Under the pieces are notes generated by a model. It worked only from the letters and a program-made list of their open reading frames with translations. It searched no databases and was not told where the DNA came from. Made by a program: the position numbers and the translations under genes. DNA of 64,000 bases from an uncultured bacterium (GTDB lineage: Bacteria; Edwardsbacteria; AC1; EtOH8): positions 1 to 64,000 of the forward strand of contig CALMGM010000001.1 in the NCBI GenBank assembly GCA_937863685.1, given 5' to 3'. This document shows, one piece after another, positions 17,156 to 24,088 of this stretch (position 1 is its first letter; the number at the start of each line of letters is the position of its first letter).

Positions 17156-17854
17156 CTATATTCCCCTTAAAATCACTCTTTCCACCAACCCCTCCGCCCT
17201 CTTTCTCATTTCGTCCAGATATTCCTCATTATATGGAGGCATATTGCGCAGTTCCTCATTTTCTGCATTTATCTGCACAAACTGCTGTAAAACCCACTTT
17301 TTTGCCCCTTTTATCTCCCGGGCTATGTTTTCCATCGAATCCAGGTCGTGATATTGCGGTACTATGGTGGTGCGGAACTCGTAATCCAATCCGGAGGACA
17401 TGATCAAAGCAATGCTTTCCCTGATATTATCCTTATTGACGGGAACACCGCAGGCCAGGTCATAGGATCCGTCGAAAGAGGCCTTGATGTCCATGGCGAT
17501 GAATTCCACCAATCCGGCCTCGATTATCCTCTTTAATCGGTCCGGAGCACTGCCGTTGGTGTCCAACTTGACCGGCAGGCCCATATCCTTCAGTTTCGTC
17601 AGCAGGGGCACCAGGTCCTTATGGATGGTCGGCTCGCCTCCTGTGACCACCACCCCGTCTATCCAGCCCTTCTTGGCCCTTAAAAACGTTTCTATGCGCT
17701 TCCAGGGGACGTCGGCGATCTGCTCCGGGTGCTTCACCAATATATGGTTGTGGCAGAACGGACAGCGGAAGTTGCATCCGGGAAGAAAAACGACTGAGAC
17801 GATCTTTCCGTCCCAGTCGATCAGCGATGTTTCGATGAAGCCTTTTATTTCCAT
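17156..17854 (-). CDS. nrdG: Anaerobic ribonucleotide reductase activating protein (radical SAM)
   Basis: A 232-residue radical SAM protein with the cluster motif C-N-F-R-C-P-F-C (Cys27, Cys31, Cys34) and a G-G-E-P-T SAM-binding segment. It belongs to the longer NrdG-like group often annotated as anaerobic RNR activating protein; the opening I-E-T-S-L-I-D-W-D-G-K is characteristic. It would use SAM and an electron to place the glycyl radical on the reductase. Here the likely target is the separate 95-residue glycyl-radical protein at 18432-18719, two genes upstream on the same strand. Confidence 0.87.
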   Translation of the reverse strand: MEIKGFIETSLIDWDGKIVSVVFLPGCNFRCPFCHNHILVKHPEQIADVPWKRIETFLRAKKGWIDGVVVTGGEPTIHKDLVPLLTKLKDMGLPVKLDTNGSAPDRLKRIIEAGLVEFIAMDIKASFDGSYDLACGVPVNKDNIRESIALIMSSGLDYEFRTTIVPQYHDLDSMENIAREIKGAKKWVLQQFVQINAENEELRNMPPYNEEYLDEMRKRAEGLVERVILRGI

Positions 17855-18014: not shown

Positions 18015-18290
18015 TTATACCGCCGGATCCAGGTACGGCTTTAATTCCTTGGACAGCGGAGGCCGCTTCACCCAGCGGTCCATCTCGTCCTCGTTGTTCA
18101 GCAAGACCACGGTGGGGATGTCCGACACCTCGTAGAAGGCGCCCTCGGCCAGGCCGTCCACCGTGTCCATGTCGAAGTAGGTGAGCGGCACCTTGCCCTG
18201 AAACTCCCACTTGTCCAGGAAATAGTTGATCTTCTCCATGGCCTGCTTGCAGACCTGGCAGGTGGGCCGGCCGAAAACTTTCAATTCCAT
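18015..18290 (-). CDS. Glutaredoxin/thioredoxin-fold protein next to class III RNR genes
   Basis: A 91-residue redoxin with the active-site motif P-T-C-Q-V-C (Cys11, Cys14) and the cis-proline segment D-I-P-T-V-V-L-L. It resembles NrdH-type and glutaredoxin-like thiol donors. Class III reductases of the NrdD2 type take electrons from a thioredoxin/glutaredoxin system instead of formate, so this protein may be the reductant for NrdD; that assignment rests on context. The ATG at 18290 is preferred because it begins right at the fold; an ATG at 18326 would add 12 residues. Confidence 0.75.
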   Translation of the reverse strand: MELKVFGRPTCQVCKQAMEKINYFLDKWEFQGKVPLTYFDMDTVDGLAEGAFYEVSDIPTVVLLNNEDEMDRWVKRPPLSKELKPYLDPAV

Positions 18291-18333
18291 AGTATATGCC
18301 TTATCCTTATATGTTTGATTTATCATGCCCCAC

Positions 18334-18431: not shown

Positions 18432-18719
18432 CTAGGCTATCTGGGAGTGGTAGCGGTCCTTGAGCTCGCCCAGCTTGCCCTTGTTCCAGCCCTCGACGAT
18501 GGTGAAATATCCGGTGACCCGGGTGATGTGGTTGACGTCCCGGCCGCCCACGGTCTGGCTCTTGATGGTGGCCCAATCGTTCTTGGCGATGCCTTCGGCG
18601 CTGCAGCGCACCTTGACCCCGTGCTTCTTGTTGCGGATGATGACATCCCCGCCCTCTTCGGTGAAGTCGTAGATATGTTTCTCGGCGCTCAGTTTGTCTT
18701 TCAGTTCCTGCAGTTCCAT
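18432..18719 (-). CDS. Stand-alone glycyl-radical domain of class III ribonucleotide reductase
   Basis: A 95-residue protein whose last ~32 residues match the extreme C-terminus of anaerobic NrdD: I-T-R-V-T-G-Y-F followed by W-N-K-G-K-x-x-E-L-K-D-R-Y. In E. coli NrdD the equivalent R-V-C-G-Y-L glycine (Gly681) carries the radical; here it is Gly70. The first ~63 residues (charged, with one Cys) are not recognised and may dock on NrdD. The large NrdD at 21178-23607 ends just before this motif, so the radical site appears to be supplied in trans. The ATG at 18719 has GGAGG five bases upstream; an ATG at 18731 overlaps that site. Confidence 0.8.
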   Translation of the reverse strand: MELQELKDKLSAEKHIYDFTEEGGDVIIRNKKHGVKVRCSAEGIAKNDWATIKSQTVGGRDVNHITRVTGYFTIVEGWNKGKLGELKDRYHSQIA

Positions 18720-18962
18720 GATGACCTCCATTATATATTATTTTGATTTTTATCTGTTGGGACACGACCTGCCGTGTCCTTACAAAGTGCAACAGCTTAA
18801 TTACACACCATAGATGTCTATTTGCATACTACGCATGCTAGATCCTTTACCCCGGGAGCTTATTTGTTCACGTTATTGATTGATTATTTATTTATAAAGA
18901 GCTATTTTAAAAAATGCAAAATATATTTCTATCTACACACACTACGCATTAAACTACATTTG

Positions 18963-19730
18963 CTATTTTTCTTTTCCTTTTTGCCCCTCTTCACTTTTGT
19001 CGTCTTGCACGATATTTTGCATTCCTGACAGATATCTTGCCACAAGTGCATTATTGCCACCATATAACGTTTGATATGATAAGCCTTGAGGTATTTGATT
19101 ATAATAAGAACCGCTAGGCATATTCACTATTGGCATATCTACTTGTGCATCAACAAGATAATTTCTTCTTTCTTGGTTGCGCACAATTTCTAATATTTCT
19201 TGTAAAATATCTCTATCAGCTCTCTCTGTTTTCTGTTCTTTACTTTCAATTTTCGTAGCTTGTTCAAGCGCTTGTTCAAGTTTCGGCCAATATGTATTAA
19301 AAACGTCTTCTAGTAATGGCTCGGCAAGTGCGTTTTCACCGCATTTTTGGACAACGGAATTTATAGTATAAATAAGTTTCTTTATTTCATCTTTATTAAC
19401 TGTAGTGTGCTGGAACTGTGCTAAGGGCTGTTCAATATCCGTGGGGTTAAGACCTATTAATAGTGTGCAAACATATGCATCCTTTGTTTTAGACAATGCT
19501 CCAGCTTCATACAGAATCCATTTCGCATCAAGGTTTTCTTTTGTTAGGCATATAATACCTACTTTTGATTTTTCCAATCTATCAGCTATTTCAGGACCCC
19601 ACCTTAAACCCTTTGAAATATCCGTTGATATCCATGGCTCTACAGCTTGGATAACTTGCTTCAACCAATTTTCTAAAGCTTCCGCAATATATTTGCTTTG
19701 ATCCCCAGACCAACTTATAAAAACAAGCAT
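18963..19730 (-). CDS. TIR-domain protein
   Basis: A 255-residue protein with an N-terminal TIR domain (about 1-135): it begins M-L-V-F-I-S-W-S, and the W-x-x-x-E motif is W-I-L-Y-E (Trp71, Glu75), the Glu being the catalytic position of TIR NADases. A coiled-coil-like stretch (about 160-200, rich in Glu/Lys) and a low-complexity Gln/Tyr/Asn tail follow; no membrane helix. Bacterial TIR proteins often act in antiviral defence by degrading NAD+ or making signalling nucleotides; no partner gene is recognisable here. The gene is AT-rich compared with both neighbours, suggesting insertion into the nrd region. AAAGG lies six bases before the ATG. Confidence 0.82.
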   Translation of the reverse strand: MLVFISWSGDQSKYIAEALENWLKQVIQAVEPWISTDISKGLRWGPEIADRLEKSKVGIICLTKENLDAKWILYEAGALSKTKDAYVCTLLIGLNPTDIEQPLAQFQHTTVNKDEIKKLIYTINSVVQKCGENALAEPLLEDVFNTYWPKLEQALEQATKIESKEQKTERADRDILQEILEIVRNQERRNYLVDAQVDMPIVNMPSGSYYNQIPQGLSYQTLYGGNNALVARYLSGMQNIVQDDKSEEGQKGKEK

Positions 19731-19845
19731 GTGATACCTTTCACTATTATTGTGGCAACTACAACAGCATAAGTTATTTTAAAAATCTAAATGCTGGCTT
19801 GCCAACTGCCTTTAAAATTTGCGTTCTATATTAAAGCACCTCGTA

Positions 19846-21078
19846 TCAGACTTTCCCCGAAAACTGCTTGTCCCAATCTATCCTGGCCGTGAACTGCATG
19901 ACCACGAACAGCGTGGCGATACAGCAAATGGTGATGGCCAGCCCGGTGTAGCCCTCCCAGAAGAAGGCGTAGGAAAAGAACACCAGGTACACCAGCTGGG
20001 CCAGGGCCGTCTCCACCAGGGCAAAGCGGGCCCCGGCCACGATCCGCATGTAGGACACCGCCAGGAACACCGACACCGCCGCGCTGATGAAGAACGCCAG
20101 GTAGATGTCGGCGTGATCCGCCAGGTAGGCCATCAGCAGGTGAAAGGCGAAGAACGACGCGGCCAGGAAAAAGTAATGCATGGGGTGCAGTTTTATGCCG
20201 CGCAGGGCGGTGATGATGAACACCAGAAAGAAGAACAGGAACAATGACACCGGGGCGAAGAAGCTGATCTTGCTGACGAACGGCCCGGGGTTTATCTTCT
20301 TGGGCATCTCCATGCCGATCTGGATCCCGGAGATCAGGTTGCTGTACTGCCAGACCAGCTCCCATCCCTTTCCCTTTTTGGTCTTGGCGGTGGGCGAGAT
20401 GGCGTTCTCCGGAAAATCTATCCGCCCGAAATCGGTGGTCATGGCCAGCCGAAAGTTGCGGATCTGCGAGATATTATCCCCGAAGACGTACCACCACTGG
20501 TCCAGCCCCTGGGAGCGGTAGGCCACCCGCACCTGGGCAGTCTGGCCGGGCTCGAGCTTCACCCATTTCCAGATCTTGCCGTCGGTGGGCACCAGCTCCT
20601 TCTCCGGCACGCCGTTGACCGAGATGGCGAAATCGTCGTAGATGCCGTCCCGGGAGGGGAAGGAATACTGAAAGCAGACCTGACGGGCATCATGGGTGCT
20701 GTTGACCAGGCCGTAGGTGCCGTCGAAATCCACCTGGTAGGTGGAATACCACAGTAGGCCCTTTTTGCGGTGGGTCAGTTTCAGGTCGGCCCTGATGTCG
20801 CTGGATTCCAGGTTCAGGTAGTAATCGGACAGGCTGGTCCTGGTCTCGGTGACGGTCTTGCCCCCCTCGGTGGTTTTCACCACCTTCTGCTCCTGCTTGA
20901 CCTGGTAGAACACCAGCGGCGCGCTCTGGCGCTGGGGGGTGCCCCACAGCTGGCCCACCGCCCGTTTGAGCTTGTGGTCCTGGGAGTTGGTGCGGTCCAC
21001 CGTGACCCCGCCCAGTATCACCCAGGCCATGGCGGTGCAGAAGAACACGAAGACGATGGCGGCTATCTTTTTGGCCAT
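19846..21078 (-). CDS. CreD-like inner-membrane protein
   Basis: A 410-residue membrane protein with one N-terminal helix, a large extracytoplasmic domain (about 30-270) and a C-terminal block of five to six helices. The C-terminal signature L-H-P-M-H-Y-F-F-L-A-A-S-F-F-A-F-H-L-L and Q-F-T-A-R-I-D-W identify the CreD family (E. coli inner-membrane protein CreD), whose biochemical role is unclear but which is tied to envelope stress and beta-lactam response. GAGGTG precedes the ATG. It lies 99 bp downstream of nrdD on the same strand; a functional link to nucleotide reduction is not evident. Confidence 0.82.
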   Translation of the reverse strand: MAKKIAAIVFVFFCTAMAWVILGGVTVDRTNSQDHKLKRAVGQLWGTPQRQSAPLVFYQVKQEQKVVKTTEGGKTVTETRTSLSDYYLNLESSDIRADLKLTHRKKGLLWYSTYQVDFDGTYGLVNSTHDARQVCFQYSFPSRDGIYDDFAISVNGVPEKELVPTDGKIWKWVKLEPGQTAQVRVAYRSQGLDQWWYVFGDNISQIRNFRLAMTTDFGRIDFPENAISPTAKTKKGKGWELVWQYSNLISGIQIGMEMPKKINPGPFVSKISFFAPVSLFLFFFLVFIITALRGIKLHPMHYFFLAASFFAFHLLMAYLADHADIYLAFFISAAVSVFLAVSYMRIVAGARFALVETALAQLVYLVFFSYAFFWEGYTGLAITICCIATLFVVMQFTARIDWDKQFSGKV

Positions 21079-21177: not shown

Positions 21178-23607
21178 CTATTTGATCCTCTCTATCCCGC
21201 TGACCCTCTTCCCGCTGCAGTGCGGGCACTCTTCCATCAGGCCCCGGTAGACCTTGCTGCAGACGTTGCAGGTGGTGAACTCCGGCGAGAAGGCGATCTG
21301 GGCGTTGCGGGTATGCCGGAAGGTCTTGGTGACGAAATTGGCGATGGACTCCGGAGACGGGTGGGAATCGGCGATCCAGATGTGGGTCAGGGCCCCGGCC
21401 TCGATCATGTCGTGGAACTTGCCCTCCTGCTTGACCCGGTCGATGGGATTGACCGGATGGGCCACGTTCAGGTAGGTGGAATTGGTGTAATAGACCGAGT
21501 TGTCCTTGAGGTTGCCCTTGACCACTTTCTCGGCCTCCTTGGGGAAGTGCTCCAGGTCCAGCTTGGCGAAGCGGAAGGCGGTGCTTTCGGCCGGGGTCTG
21601 CTCCAGCACGAACTTCATGTTGTATTCCTTGGCCAGCTCCTTGGTCTTGAGGTGCAGGTAGGCAATGATCTTCAGGCCGAACTTGAAGGCCTCGGTGGAT
21701 TGGTGCAGTTCCTGCCCGGTGTGGATCTGGACCATTTCGTTGAGGCCCAGCATGCCGATCAGGAACGACACCCGGGGCAGCCGCAGGTAGCTCTCGCCGT
21801 CCTTCTCCATGGCCAGCAGGGCCAGCGGCCCCTGCTCTTTTAGGGCCATCAGCTTTTCGATGAATTTTCTTTTCTGGATGTGGCCCTTGGCGGAGATGTG
21901 CAGGAAGTCATCAATCTTTTTATACAGGGCATTGGTGTCGCCCTTGGCCAAGTAGGCGATGCGCGGCAGGTTCAGGGTGATGTTCTGCAGGGCCGAGTAG
22001 CGCATCTTCCAGGGGAAGTGGGCGTCGTTCAGGTCGGACTCCTCCAGCTTGAAGGCCAGCCGGCAGCACTCGGAGATCTTGGCGGTCTCGCCCCGGTCGA
22101 ACACGAAATAGGTGTTGCCCTTCTCGGCCGCCACCTGGGAGATATGGTTGAGAAAATCCTGGTGGCCGGGGGTCAGGTAGAATTTCTCGGTGATGTGCAC
22201 CTGCGGCTTGGGAAAGAAGAAGGGGCGCCCGGTGCCGTCCCCGCCCTTGTAGACGTCGAACAGGGCCCAGGCAAAACGCTGGGCTTCCTTTAGATAGTCG
22301 CCATATTTCTTGCCGGTATATTCTCCTCCCGGGCCGATGGCCGGAACGTTCTCAAAATGCTTGGGGGTCTCCCAGTAGATGTTCAGGTCGGAGAAGATGG
22401 CCTGGCCGCCCCGGGCCACCGACTGCTGGCTGTATTCGAAGATCATCATCTGGGCCAGCTGCTGCATATCGCGGTCGGACATGCCCACCAGGTACGGCGC
22501 AAAGAAGACGTTGACGGCATCCCAGCCGATGGCCCCGGCAAAGTGCCCCTGCAGGGCGGCCGAGAATTTCACCATGTGGGCCAGCAAGGTGTCGGCATGC
22601 CTGGCCGGCTTGGCGATGGATAACGCGTTGGGCAAAGACAGCCCGAATTTTTTGACATATTCCAGGCTCTGGCCGGAACAATAGGGGCGATTGATGAAGC
22701 CCAGGTCGTGCAGGTGAATGTCGCCCCGGGAGTGGGCGTCGGCCACCTCCTGGGAGAAGACCTTGGCCAATGCGTACTGCTTGTTGATGGTCTCGGCCAG
22801 CGACATGTTGGTGGCCTCGGGATTGTGGGGAATATTGGCATTCTCCCGGTTGCGGTCGGTCAGGATCTTCTCCACGTCGAACAGGGGAAGCCCCAGGCGG
22901 GAGTGCTTCTTGCGGGCCTCCTCCAGGCCGTGTTCCACCAGCTTGGCGTCAACCAATTCGCGGACCAGGGACGAGGTCAGGCGCTTGACCTTGGCGCTGA
23001 TGATCTGGTCCTCCACTTCCCGGGCCACCTTGTGGGCGATATCCTCGGCCACCCCGGCCTCCTTCTTTAGGGCGGCGATGATCCGGTCCCGGTCCCACTG
23101 GACTATGTTGTCGTCCGACACCCGGACGAACAGCGCCAGGTCGGTGGCATCCTGCTCCCTGCCGGCCTCTGCAGGATCGGGCTTGGCAACGATCTTCTGC
23201 TGGCGGATCTTGGAGCGTTGGTCGCGGTAAAGAATGTAGGCCTTGGCGGTCTTGGCATGGCCGCGTTCGATCAAGACTTTTTCCACGGCATCCTGGACCT
23301 GTTCCACGTTGGGCAGATGATCGCCCTTGGAGGAATACAAAAAGAGCACCACCTCGTCGGCCAGGTTCTCGGAGACGCTGCTGTCCGAGCCGCCCACCGC
23401 CTGGGCGGCCTTGAAGATGGCTTCGGTGATCTTGCGCTTGTCGAAGTTGACGATGTTGCCGTTGCGTTTCTGGACCAGATGAAACATCTTGTTGGCCAAA
23501 GAGCTGTGCAGGTCCTTGATCTTCTCTCCGGCAAATAAAAAGCGGGGAGGCTCCTGGGTGTCGGGGGTGGGCGGGCTGGCTAGTAGCTCACGGTTCTTAT
23601 CTGGCAT
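21178..23607 (-). CDS. nrdD: Class III ribonucleoside-triphosphate reductase, lacking its own glycyl-radical loop
   Basis: An 809-residue anaerobic reductase making deoxynucleotides from NTPs. Two ATP-cone regulatory domains (about 40-140 and 155-250) precede the ten-stranded barrel. Likely catalytic cysteines are in P-Y-C-S-G-Q-S-L and S-E-C-C-R-L. The C-terminus has a zinc ribbon, C-N-V-C (780, 783) and C-P-H-C (794, 797), then ends S-G-I-E-R-I-K-stop. Relatives continue here with R-x-T/C-G-Y and ~30 more residues carrying the radical glycine; no such sequence follows the stop in any frame I checked. The missing part matches the protein at 18432-18719. A GAGGGA site overlaps the nrdR stop seven bases upstream, so it is coupled to nrdR. 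Confidence 0.92.
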   Translation of the reverse strand: MPDKNRELLASPPTPDTQEPPRFLFAGEKIKDLHSSLANKMFHLVQKRNGNIVNFDKRKITEAIFKAAQAVGGSDSSVSENLADEVVLFLYSSKGDHLPNVEQVQDAVEKVLIERGHAKTAKAYILYRDQRSKIRQQKIVAKPDPAEAGREQDATDLALFVRVSDDNIVQWDRDRIIAALKKEAGVAEDIAHKVAREVEDQIISAKVKRLTSSLVRELVDAKLVEHGLEEARKKHSRLGLPLFDVEKILTDRNRENANIPHNPEATNMSLAETINKQYALAKVFSQEVADAHSRGDIHLHDLGFINRPYCSGQSLEYVKKFGLSLPNALSIAKPARHADTLLAHMVKFSAALQGHFAGAIGWDAVNVFFAPYLVGMSDRDMQQLAQMMIFEYSQQSVARGGQAIFSDLNIYWETPKHFENVPAIGPGGEYTGKKYGDYLKEAQRFAWALFDVYKGGDGTGRPFFFPKPQVHITEKFYLTPGHQDFLNHISQVAAEKGNTYFVFDRGETAKISECCRLAFKLEESDLNDAHFPWKMRYSALQNITLNLPRIAYLAKGDTNALYKKIDDFLHISAKGHIQKRKFIEKLMALKEQGPLALLAMEKDGESYLRLPRVSFLIGMLGLNEMVQIHTGQELHQSTEAFKFGLKIIAYLHLKTKELAKEYNMKFVLEQTPAESTAFRFAKLDLEHFPKEAEKVVKGNLKDNSVYYTNSTYLNVAHPVNPIDRVKQEGKFHDMIEAGALTHIWIADSHPSPESIANFVTKTFRHTRNAQIAFSPEFTTCNVCSKVYRGLMEECPHCSGKRVSGIERIK

Positions 23608-23614
23608 GTTTCCC

Positions 23615-24088
23615 TCACTTTTTTATGTTTTTCTGCTGGCTTTTCTCGGCGAATGATTTGGCGGCATCGGCGAATTCGGACACCTCGCGGAAGGAACGGT
23701 ACACCGAGGCAAAACGCACGTAGGCCACCCCGTCCAGCTCCTGGAGATGCTTCATCACATGTTCCCCGATGATATCGGCCGGCACCTCGTTGTGGCCCCC
23801 AGACTGGAGCTCGTTCTCGATGGCTTCCACCATCCTCTCCAGGGCATCGATGCTGATGGGCCTCTTCTCCACCGCCCGGCGGACACCGGAAAGCAGCTTC
23901 TGGCGGTCGAAAGCCTCCCGCCGGCCGTCCTTCTTGATGACCATCAGGGCTGATTCTATGTACTCGTAAGTGGTATAACGGCGATGGCATTGCAGGCATT
24001 CCCGCCGGCGGCGTATGGCCTGGCCATCCTTACATAAGCGGGAGTCGATCACCTTGTCCTTGGGGAAAGAACAGGCTGGACATTTCAT
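23615..24088 (-). CDS. nrdR: Transcriptional repressor NrdR
   Basis: A 157-residue NrdR: an N-terminal zinc ribbon (M-K-C-P-A-C and C-L-Q-C-H-R-R-Y-T-T-Y-E) and an ATP-cone domain (about 50-140, with V-I-K-K-D-G-R-R-E-A-F-D). It senses ATP/dATP and represses ribonucleotide reductase genes by binding paired NrdR boxes. It is the first gene of the nrdR-nrdD unit, and two box-like sites lie in its own promoter, consistent with autoregulation. Confidence 0.95.
   Translation of the reverse strand: MKCPACSFPKDKVIDSRLCKDGQAIRRRRECLQCHRRYTTYEYIESALMVIKKDGRREAFDRQKLLSGVRRAVEKRPISIDALERMVEAIENELQSGGHNEVPADIIGEHVMKHLQELDGVAYVRFASVYRSFREVSEFADAAKSFAEKSQQKNIKK

What the first reader, a model, noticed from the sequence alone, without database searches (positions are those of the whole stretch)
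18780..19850. AT-rich TIR-domain gene inserted in the nucleotide-reduction region
The TIR gene keeps the W-x-x-x-E motif with the catalytic Glu75 and is markedly more AT-rich than both flanks. It separates nrdD/creD from the glycyl-radical gene. TIR NADases deplete NAD+ during phage attack, so a link with dNTP supply would be interesting, though simple insertion is the more cautious reading. The coiled coil and low-complexity tail may mediate assembly.
Basis: partly seen in the sequence, partly recalled or inferred. Interest (0 to 1): 0.5.

Follow-up and report, generated by a model that had tools for sequence, protein, structure and literature searches.

The report
TIR gene inside split reductase operon
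A mobile immune-type (TIR) gene has landed in one bacterium's DNA-building-block operon, in a gap where relatives carry other foreign-looking genes or almost nothing; the more surprising point is that the operon's reductase is itself made in two pieces, with its radical-bearing tip encoded by a separate small gene on the far side of that gap.

Summary
In detail: an AT-rich 255-aa TIR gene (18963-19730, minus strand; W71-x3-E75) lies between nrdD/creD and a small glycyl-radical gene. A functional TIR-dNTP link is not supported: 0 of 9 family relatives (Candidatus Edwardsbacteria) have this TIR, 7 show the nrd cluster, and the same gap there holds a restriction-modification pair, other AT-rich ORFs, or little. 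Its homologues sit on phages, prophages and plasmids. AT-richness is typical of the family (60 of 71 viral loci). Likely role, inferred: stand-alone NAD-cleaving phage-defence effector.

The "glycyl-radical gene" is the missing end of NrdD. In all 8 family genomes with NrdD the main protein stops where fused relatives have the radical glycine (stop codon read in 7), and a ~95-aa protein supplies the RVTGYF loop. No class I/II reductase was found in 10 genomes. Related small proteins accompany intact NrdD in 6 other genomes and glycine-less NrdD in 5; a shorter kind lies just downstream of glycine-less NrdD in 22 of 24 further loci. This suggests a repair "spare part" that repeatedly became an obligate subunit. 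Eight paper searches in one open library found no account of it in cells.

The parts
18963..19730 (-). TIR-domain gene, 255 aa; TIR domain in the first ~150 residues, helical region after it; W71/E75
18732..19845 (.). AT-rich stretch (GC 0.351) filling the variable slot between creD and the glycyl-radical gene
   Evidence: slot short or otherwise filled in relatives
18432..18719 (-). detached NrdD glycyl-radical gene, 95 aa from the conserved start MELQ (ORF opens at 18731); carries HITRVTGYF
   Evidence: Pfam NRDD positions 530-560 of 562; conserved in 8 of 10 family genomes, this one included
21178..23607 (-). nrdD main chain, 809 aa, ATP cones and catalytic barrel; ends ...GIERIK at the codon aligned with the radical glycine
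   Evidence: Pfam NRDD 1-539 of 562; alignment to fused relatives
19846..21078 (-). CreD-like membrane protein gene, usual member of the cluster
   Evidence: Pfam CreD E 2.3e-16; full length in 4 of 7 relatives
18015..18326 (-). glutaredoxin/thioredoxin-like gene, likely NrdD reductant (inferred)
   Evidence: weak, below cut-off: Glrx-like 19.9 bits of 26, Thioredoxin 19.2 of 23.5; same place in 7 of 7 relatives
17156..17854 (-). nrdG2, radical SAM activase
   Evidence: TIGR02495 195.7 bits, cut-off 131.15
23615..24088 (-). nrdR, repressor of nrd genes
   Evidence: Zn_ribbon_NrdR and ATP-cone

Best explanation
The TIR gene is a horizontally acquired, stand-alone TIR effector of a phage- and plasmid-borne family. 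It sits in a variable slot of the nrd cluster of a Candidatus Edwardsbacteria genome and most likely has no functional tie to nucleotide reduction. Shown: presence in this genome only among its family, slot variability, mobile relatives, invariant W/E, TIR fold in the model. Inferred: it cleaves NAD+ (or makes a signal from it) on phage attack. The slot lies between the two genes of a split class III ribonucleotide reductase. NrdD lacks the radical glycine; a 95-aa protein brings the RVTGYF loop. Inferred mechanism: the small protein docks on NrdD, its loop fills the place of the missing tip, NrdG2 puts the radical on its glycine, and the radical passes to the NrdD active-site cysteine, as in a repaired YfiD-PFL complex but permanently.
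For: TIR: own genome only among 61; relatives on plasmids, prophages and phages; 114 stretches of viral contigs encode relatives, 80 kept; no recurrent partner gene within 1.5 kb, the largest neighbour family being in 9 of 75 loci; fold matches SPARTA TIR-APAZ, plant TIR and SARM1. Slot: AT-rich ORFs in 4 of 8 clusters, gaps of 112-259 bases in 3 of 8, one with an N6/N4 methylase plus MvaI/BcnI nuclease. Split NrdD: 8 of 8 family genomes with NrdD; stop at the aligned Gly position; small protein under purifying selection (dN 0.014, dS 0.21 between G000 and G003); no class I/II RNR model in 10 genomes.
Against: Nothing marks how the TIR stretch came in: no second gene of a mobile element is seen in it, and the creD 3'-end copies at G001 and G003 and the nrdD one at G009 have no counterpart beside the TIR. 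A 14-base AT-rich match (13 identical) lies on both sides of the TIR gene, but 18 of 300 shuffles score as high. One plasmid relative has two more TIR genes within about 3 kb, so the family is not always alone. NADase activity, defence and the NrdD-small protein complex are untested. The small protein's model is poor (pLDDT 62). dN/dS of the small gene rises to about 0.4-0.6 between the window's genus and the others. G002 and G005 show no RNR at all, which I cannot explain.
Confidence: 0.82

Rival explanations
1. The TIR protein is functionally coupled to the nrd operon, for example sensing or limiting dNTP supply during infection.
For: Same strand and inside the cluster.
Against: Absent from 9 of 9 family relatives, 7 of which show the nrd cluster; relatives of the TIR lie in unrelated contexts; the same slot holds unrelated genes in other genomes.
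Confidence: 0.04
2. The TIR gene is a decaying or inactive passenger without defence function.
For: C-terminal region is short and unlike its relatives'; found in one genome of the family only.
Against: Open frame, all 17 invariant columns of the family kept, W71 and E75 among them.
Confidence: 0.15
3. The small protein is a GrcA-like repair part for another glycyl radical enzyme, not the missing piece of this NrdD.
For: Its ~58-aa N-terminal part lies outside the NrdD models' match; YfiD of PFL is built alike (PMC8683613, Discussion part 1). Other glycyl radical enzymes of this genome were not sought.
Against: The window protein's loop matches NrdD models only; it shares a fragment with nrdG2 in 7 of 7 relatives, with nrdD in 6 and with nrdR in 5; NrdD lacks exactly this loop.
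Confidence: 0.07
4. The NrdD split is an assembly or frameshift artefact.
For: The named relatives are metagenome assemblies.
Against: Same break in 8 assemblies, with three different stop codons among the 7 read; in the 7 with both genes on one contig over 1.1 kb lie between them; no loop follows the stop in the stretches printed for six relatives.
Confidence: 0.02

Closest known systems
Stand-alone bacterial TIR proteins (PADLOC TIR-TM model PDLC03016; phrog_13899; plasmid/prophage 'toll/interleukin-1 receptor domain-containing protein')
   Same: Residues 1-188/189 match both models (E 1.5e-64; 3e-71); mobile context
   Different: C-terminal part does not match; no hydrophobic membrane segment visible in it by eye
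SPARTA TIR-APAZ and SARM1 TIR NADases
   Same: TIR fold (Foldseek E down to 5.8e-6), catalytic-type Glu
   Different: No APAZ, Argonaute or SARM1 partner domain in the protein; 11-16% identity in those rows; activity untested
YfiD/GrcA spare part of pyruvate formate-lyase
   Same: Small stand-alone protein with a C-terminal glycyl-radical loop and an N-terminal part of about 60 aa
   Different: Loop is of NrdD type; in Edwardsbacteria the main enzyme has no glycine of its own, so the part would be obligatory
Split RNRs: class II NrdJa/NrdJb, phage Aeh1 NrdA-a/b, phage nrdD interrupted by introns, inteins or breaks (PMC9669993, PMC3653736, passages)
   Same: One RNR chain encoded by two genes
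   Different: Different class or different break; here the break removes just the radical loop at its glycine, in cellular genomes, and recurs. PMC3653736 also says that some cellular organisms contain split RNR genes; its references were not followed

Membership tests
Bacterial TIR (TIR_2, PF13676) | Profile score above gathering cut-off | tested here: met
   37.2 vs 28 bits
Bacterial TIR (TIR_2, PF13676) | Catalytic-type Glu in W-x3-E | tested here: met
   W71/E75 invariant in 40 sequences
Bacterial TIR (TIR_2, PF13676) | NAD+ cleavage | not testable with these tools
   needs an enzyme assay
PADLOC TIR-TM | N-terminal model region | tested here: met
   model 1-193 of 293
PADLOC TIR-TM | C-terminal part (TM by its name; meaning of the name guessed, not looked up) | tested here: not met
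   model 194-293 unmatched; no hydrophobic stretch in residues 189-255 by eye (sequence)
Thoeris (ThsB) | ThsA gene beside the TIR gene | tested here: not met
   neighbours are creD and nrd genes; ThsA not sought elsewhere in the genome
Class III RNR (NrdD) | NRDD barrel with ATP cone | tested here: met
Class III RNR (NrdD) | Radical glycine at the C-terminus of the same chain | tested here: not met
   chain stops at that codon; loop in a separate gene
Class III RNR (NrdD) | NrdG activase | tested here: met
   TIGR02495 above cut-off
GrcA/YfiD-like spare part | Stand-alone glycyl-radical domain | tested here: met
GrcA/YfiD-like spare part | Host enzyme keeps its own glycine (repair role) | tested here: not met
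   absent in Edwardsbacteria; kept in 6 other genomes with a related small protein
GrcA/YfiD-like spare part | Radical installed in complex with the cut enzyme | not testable with these tools
   needs EPR

The most novel reading that the evidence does not exclude
Edwardsbacteria live on a class III ribonucleotide reductase that is permanently in the form oxygen would cut it to: NrdD ends at the radical-glycine codon, and a cheap, replaceable 95-aa subunit carries the radical. This arose from a spare-part protein that first accompanied intact NrdD and then became obligatory, several times in bacteria and, with a different break, in archaea. Because the two genes no longer need to touch, the space between them has become a landing slot for foreign defence genes such as this TIR.
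Probability: 0.55. Interest if true: 0.72.

Novelty: new variant of a known kind. Interest (0 to 1): 0.5.

Why it matters
The TIR insertion alone is an ordinary example of a defence-type gene at a variable site (taken alone: a new member of a known kind). The split NrdD matters more. Andorfer et al. (PMC8683613; passages and Discussion part 1 seen) say that only two spare-part proteins, both for pyruvate formate-lyase, are validated and that others may exist for other glycyl radical enzymes. Here are candidate NrdD-specific ones with a visible series: intact enzyme plus spare part, then glycine-less enzyme plus apparently obligatory part. It can be tested with three small genes.

Tried and rejected
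Functional TIR-nrd link: rejected. Integration marks at the TIR stretch: creD 3'-end copies are found at G001 and G003, and an nrdD 3'-end copy at G009, but not here (the best creD match is reached by 256 of 300 shuffles after the TIR and 70 of 300 before it). The repeat-finding tools were not run on the window. A palindrome pattern I wrote for the repeat near 18760 found nothing in the window, not even that repeat, so it was badly written. Scans with the single TIR protein found no relatives; an alignment query worked on viral contigs. Viral scan for the small glycyl protein: none of 328 pattern matches confirmed. The small protein's structure model was too weak to search with. The TIR-TM/CBASS and mEp390/TIR paper searches gave no paper.

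Rows dropped: L026 and L048 were read in a wrong frame and L047 ends early, so the glycine alignment rests on the 7 Edwardsbacteria rows and the fused L010, L011, L065 and L012; the G004 tail (L026) was read. In one search most loci and four loci were missed by my search patterns; the two calls together give the counts. and one search used 75 of 80 loci.

Paper searches on a split or detached NrdD radical domain: (10 of 10 used). They cover one open-access library only; absence there is not proof. Seen as passages: PMC9531940, PMC9669993, PMC11226230, PMC11528403, PMC4390871, PMC12288474, PMC3653736; PMC8683613 as passages plus Discussion part 1 of 2. All other papers: listing only.

Full report
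What was checked. The TIR ORF is 18963-19730 on the minus strand, 255 aa, with a TIR_2 domain above the Pfam cut-off, W71 and E75 in the stated motif, both invariant in a 40-sequence alignment (39 of the 80 viral loci plus the window). Its GC is 0.361 against 0.467 and 0.580 in the 3 kb flanks; the AT-rich stretch is about 18732-19845.

Where it is. The closest named relatives are Candidatus Edwardsbacteria (record titles; the contig of relative G003 is JAGVNJ010000044.1 by length and match). Ten genomes of this family are held, this one included. The minus-strand order is nrdR, nrdD, creD-like, TIR, a small glycyl-radical gene, a glutaredoxin/thioredoxin-like gene (below Pfam cut-offs), nrdG2.

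Is TIR tied to nrd? The TIR protein was found in 1 of 61 genomes, its own; 0 of 9 family relatives have it. Seven relatives show the cluster, two of them (G007, G004) on contigs that lack its start. Between nrdD or creD and the small gene, G008, G007 and G004 have 112, 165 and 259 bases; G003 has 965 bases with two extra copies of the creD 3' end and no clear gene; G001 has an AT-rich stretch with a 72-aa ORF rich in hydrophobic residues and only a creD 3' remnant; G006 has two AT-rich ORFs without Pfam match and no creD; G009 has an N6/N4 DNA methylase and an MvaI/BcnI-type restriction enzyme and no creD. So, this genome included, 4 of 8 clusters hold AT-rich ORFs in this one slot. Against a unique hotspot: G007 and G004 also carry an extra GC-rich gene (DUF4389 in the one scanned) between the thioredoxin-like gene and nrdG2.

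What the TIR is. Tblastn found 11 plasmid records and 4 phage records of 2 phages. Nine were opened, two of them without annotation. The others: a prophage-like region on an E. coli plasmid, between holin and Q genes; phage mEp390, in the same place; a small mobilizable Serratia plasmid, beside its replication gene; an Acidithiobacillus plasmid, with two more TIR genes nearby; a P2-like phage; and two cyanobacterial plasmids, one with the gene directly beside a type III-B cas10 gene. In viral contigs 114 stretches encode relatives, 80 kept. Of 75 loci examined, the most frequent neighbour families within 1.5 kb occur in 9 each, so no partner gene is evident. Of 71 with enough flank, 60 have the TIR gene less GC-rich than both sides, mean difference -0.092: AT-richness belongs to the family. 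The model of the window protein (pLDDT 85) matches the TIR domains of SPARTA, plant TIR proteins and SARM1; TM-scores over the query are modest (0.28-0.45). Two other TIR_2 domains above the cut-off occur elsewhere in this genome. The likely role is a stand-alone TIR effector in phage defence; enzyme activity is inferred.

The flanking enzyme is split. NrdD (21178-23607) matches Pfam NRDD positions 1-539 of 562; the small ORF matches 530-560. In 8 of 10 family genomes there is one NrdD main chain (in G007 on two contigs), broken in the same way, and one small gene; in G004 and G007 the Pfam search did not list the small gene but the protein and alignment searches found it. All 8 main chains end GI-x-x-IK. 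Aligned to fused relatives reading GITRITGYF, GITRIVGYF and GITRVTGFF, the stop codon falls in the column of the radical glycine; in the 7 genomes whose stop was read it is TAG five times, TGA once and TAA once. Nothing like the loop follows the stop in the stretches of about 40 codons printed for six relatives. The main chain aligns with solved NrdD structures over most of its length. The small proteins of the 7 relatives are 64-97% identical to the window's and under purifying selection: strong within a genus (dN 0.014, dS 0.21 for G000-G003; dN 0.039, dS 0.45 for G008-G009), weaker across genera (for example dN 0.28, dS 0.51 for G000-G007).

It is probably the working enzyme. Class I/II large-subunit models PF02867 and PF17975 match 0 of 10 family genomes, while PF02867 rings in 11 of 14 control genomes and PF17975 in 1 of 14. 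In the 8 genomes with NrdD, the two-piece enzyme is the only RNR found. Against a simple story, G002 (listed 100% complete) and G005 show neither NrdD nor the others; I cannot explain this.

It is not unique. In 386 genomes the small-protein alignment matched 101; in 44 of these (8 Edwardsbacteria) some match lies in a frame under 200 aa, in the other 57 only in longer frames. I took 35 of the 36 others with a short frame for a second search, leaving out G219, a 40-aa fragment at a contig end. A small protein of the Edwardsbacteria kind, with its N-terminal part, is in 10 of these (8 of the 10 read), in a Thermoplasmata and a Margulisiibacteriota assembly, and as two copies, one cut by a contig end, in a second Thermoplasmatota. 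NrdD in the same genome keeps its own glycine loop in 6 (G082, G379, G251, G129, G080, G061) and lacks it in 5 (G368, G223, G352, G155, G292; G368 keeps a degenerate tail); for G062 NrdD is cut by a contig end and for G063 no main chain was found. G082 (own loop) and G223/G352 (loop lost) belong to one family, f70. Another kind (53-79 aa between stops in 20 of 22, longer in L192 and L193; EVYSRVVGY-like loops) lies just downstream of a glycine-less NrdD in 22 of 24 loci (L184-L207). Of the other two, G343 has it on another contig and G044 was not parsed, although one search places it directly downstream. In 6 of the 22 the second ORF is in the frame of the first, so reading through the stop is not excluded there. 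The last of the 35, G092, shows only a contig-end fragment. In two archaeal assemblies the break lies within the zinc finger instead. On a tree of 32 NrdD cores without the tail, own/lost needs 5 changes, or 4 with the two archaeal rows set aside; G292 was too short and left out, and the 24 loci of the second kind are not in this tree.

Mechanism proposed. Shown: the gene split, its conservation, the missing glycine, the loop in trans. Inferred: the small protein docks, receives the radical from NrdG2 while bound, and hands it to the cysteine in the barrel. The model is YfiD: its residues 1-60 matter for binding oxygen-cut PFL, and its glycine takes up the radical well only with cut PFL present (PMC8683613, Discussion part 1 read). 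That paper states that only the two PFL spare parts are validated and that others may exist. PMC3653736 (passages) reports nrdD split in phages by introns, inteins or breaks, and says that some cellular organisms contain split RNR genes, without the passages naming NrdD. No paper I saw describes a detached NrdD radical domain in cells; the searches are listed in Tried and rejected.

Verdict. The TIR is a new member of a known kind, in an ordinary kind of place, with no sign of a dNTP link. The split class III reductase on its flanks is the more interesting feature, and is why the overall score is not low.

Noticed in passing
window 18432-18719 and 21178-23607: NrdD is split: main chain stops at the radical-glycine codon and a 95-aa gene supplies the loop; the same in 8 of 8 family genomes that have NrdD.
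   Followed up: yes
   Followed up: partly
L047 near 3840; L066: Two archaeal NrdDs are broken inside the zinc finger, so that the two CxxC pairs lie on separate reading frames or ORFs.
   Followed up: partly
L013 9072-9270; L014 slot; L017 6900-6968: The last 60 or so bases of creD or nrdD are duplicated in or beside the variable slot, as if inserts restore the 3' end of the gene they enter.
   Followed up: partly
G002 and G005 (family relatives): No NrdD, class I or class II RNR model matches in either genome, although G002 is listed as 100% complete in 9 contigs.
   Followed up: partly
L077 3001-3843: A relative of the TIR gene lies directly beside a type III-B cas10 gene on a Gloeothece plasmid.
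   Followed up: no
L018 3381-4013; L019 3232-3963: A membrane-type gene (DUF4389 in L018) is inserted between the thioredoxin-like gene and nrdG2 in the two genomes of one Edwardsbacteria genus.
   Followed up: no
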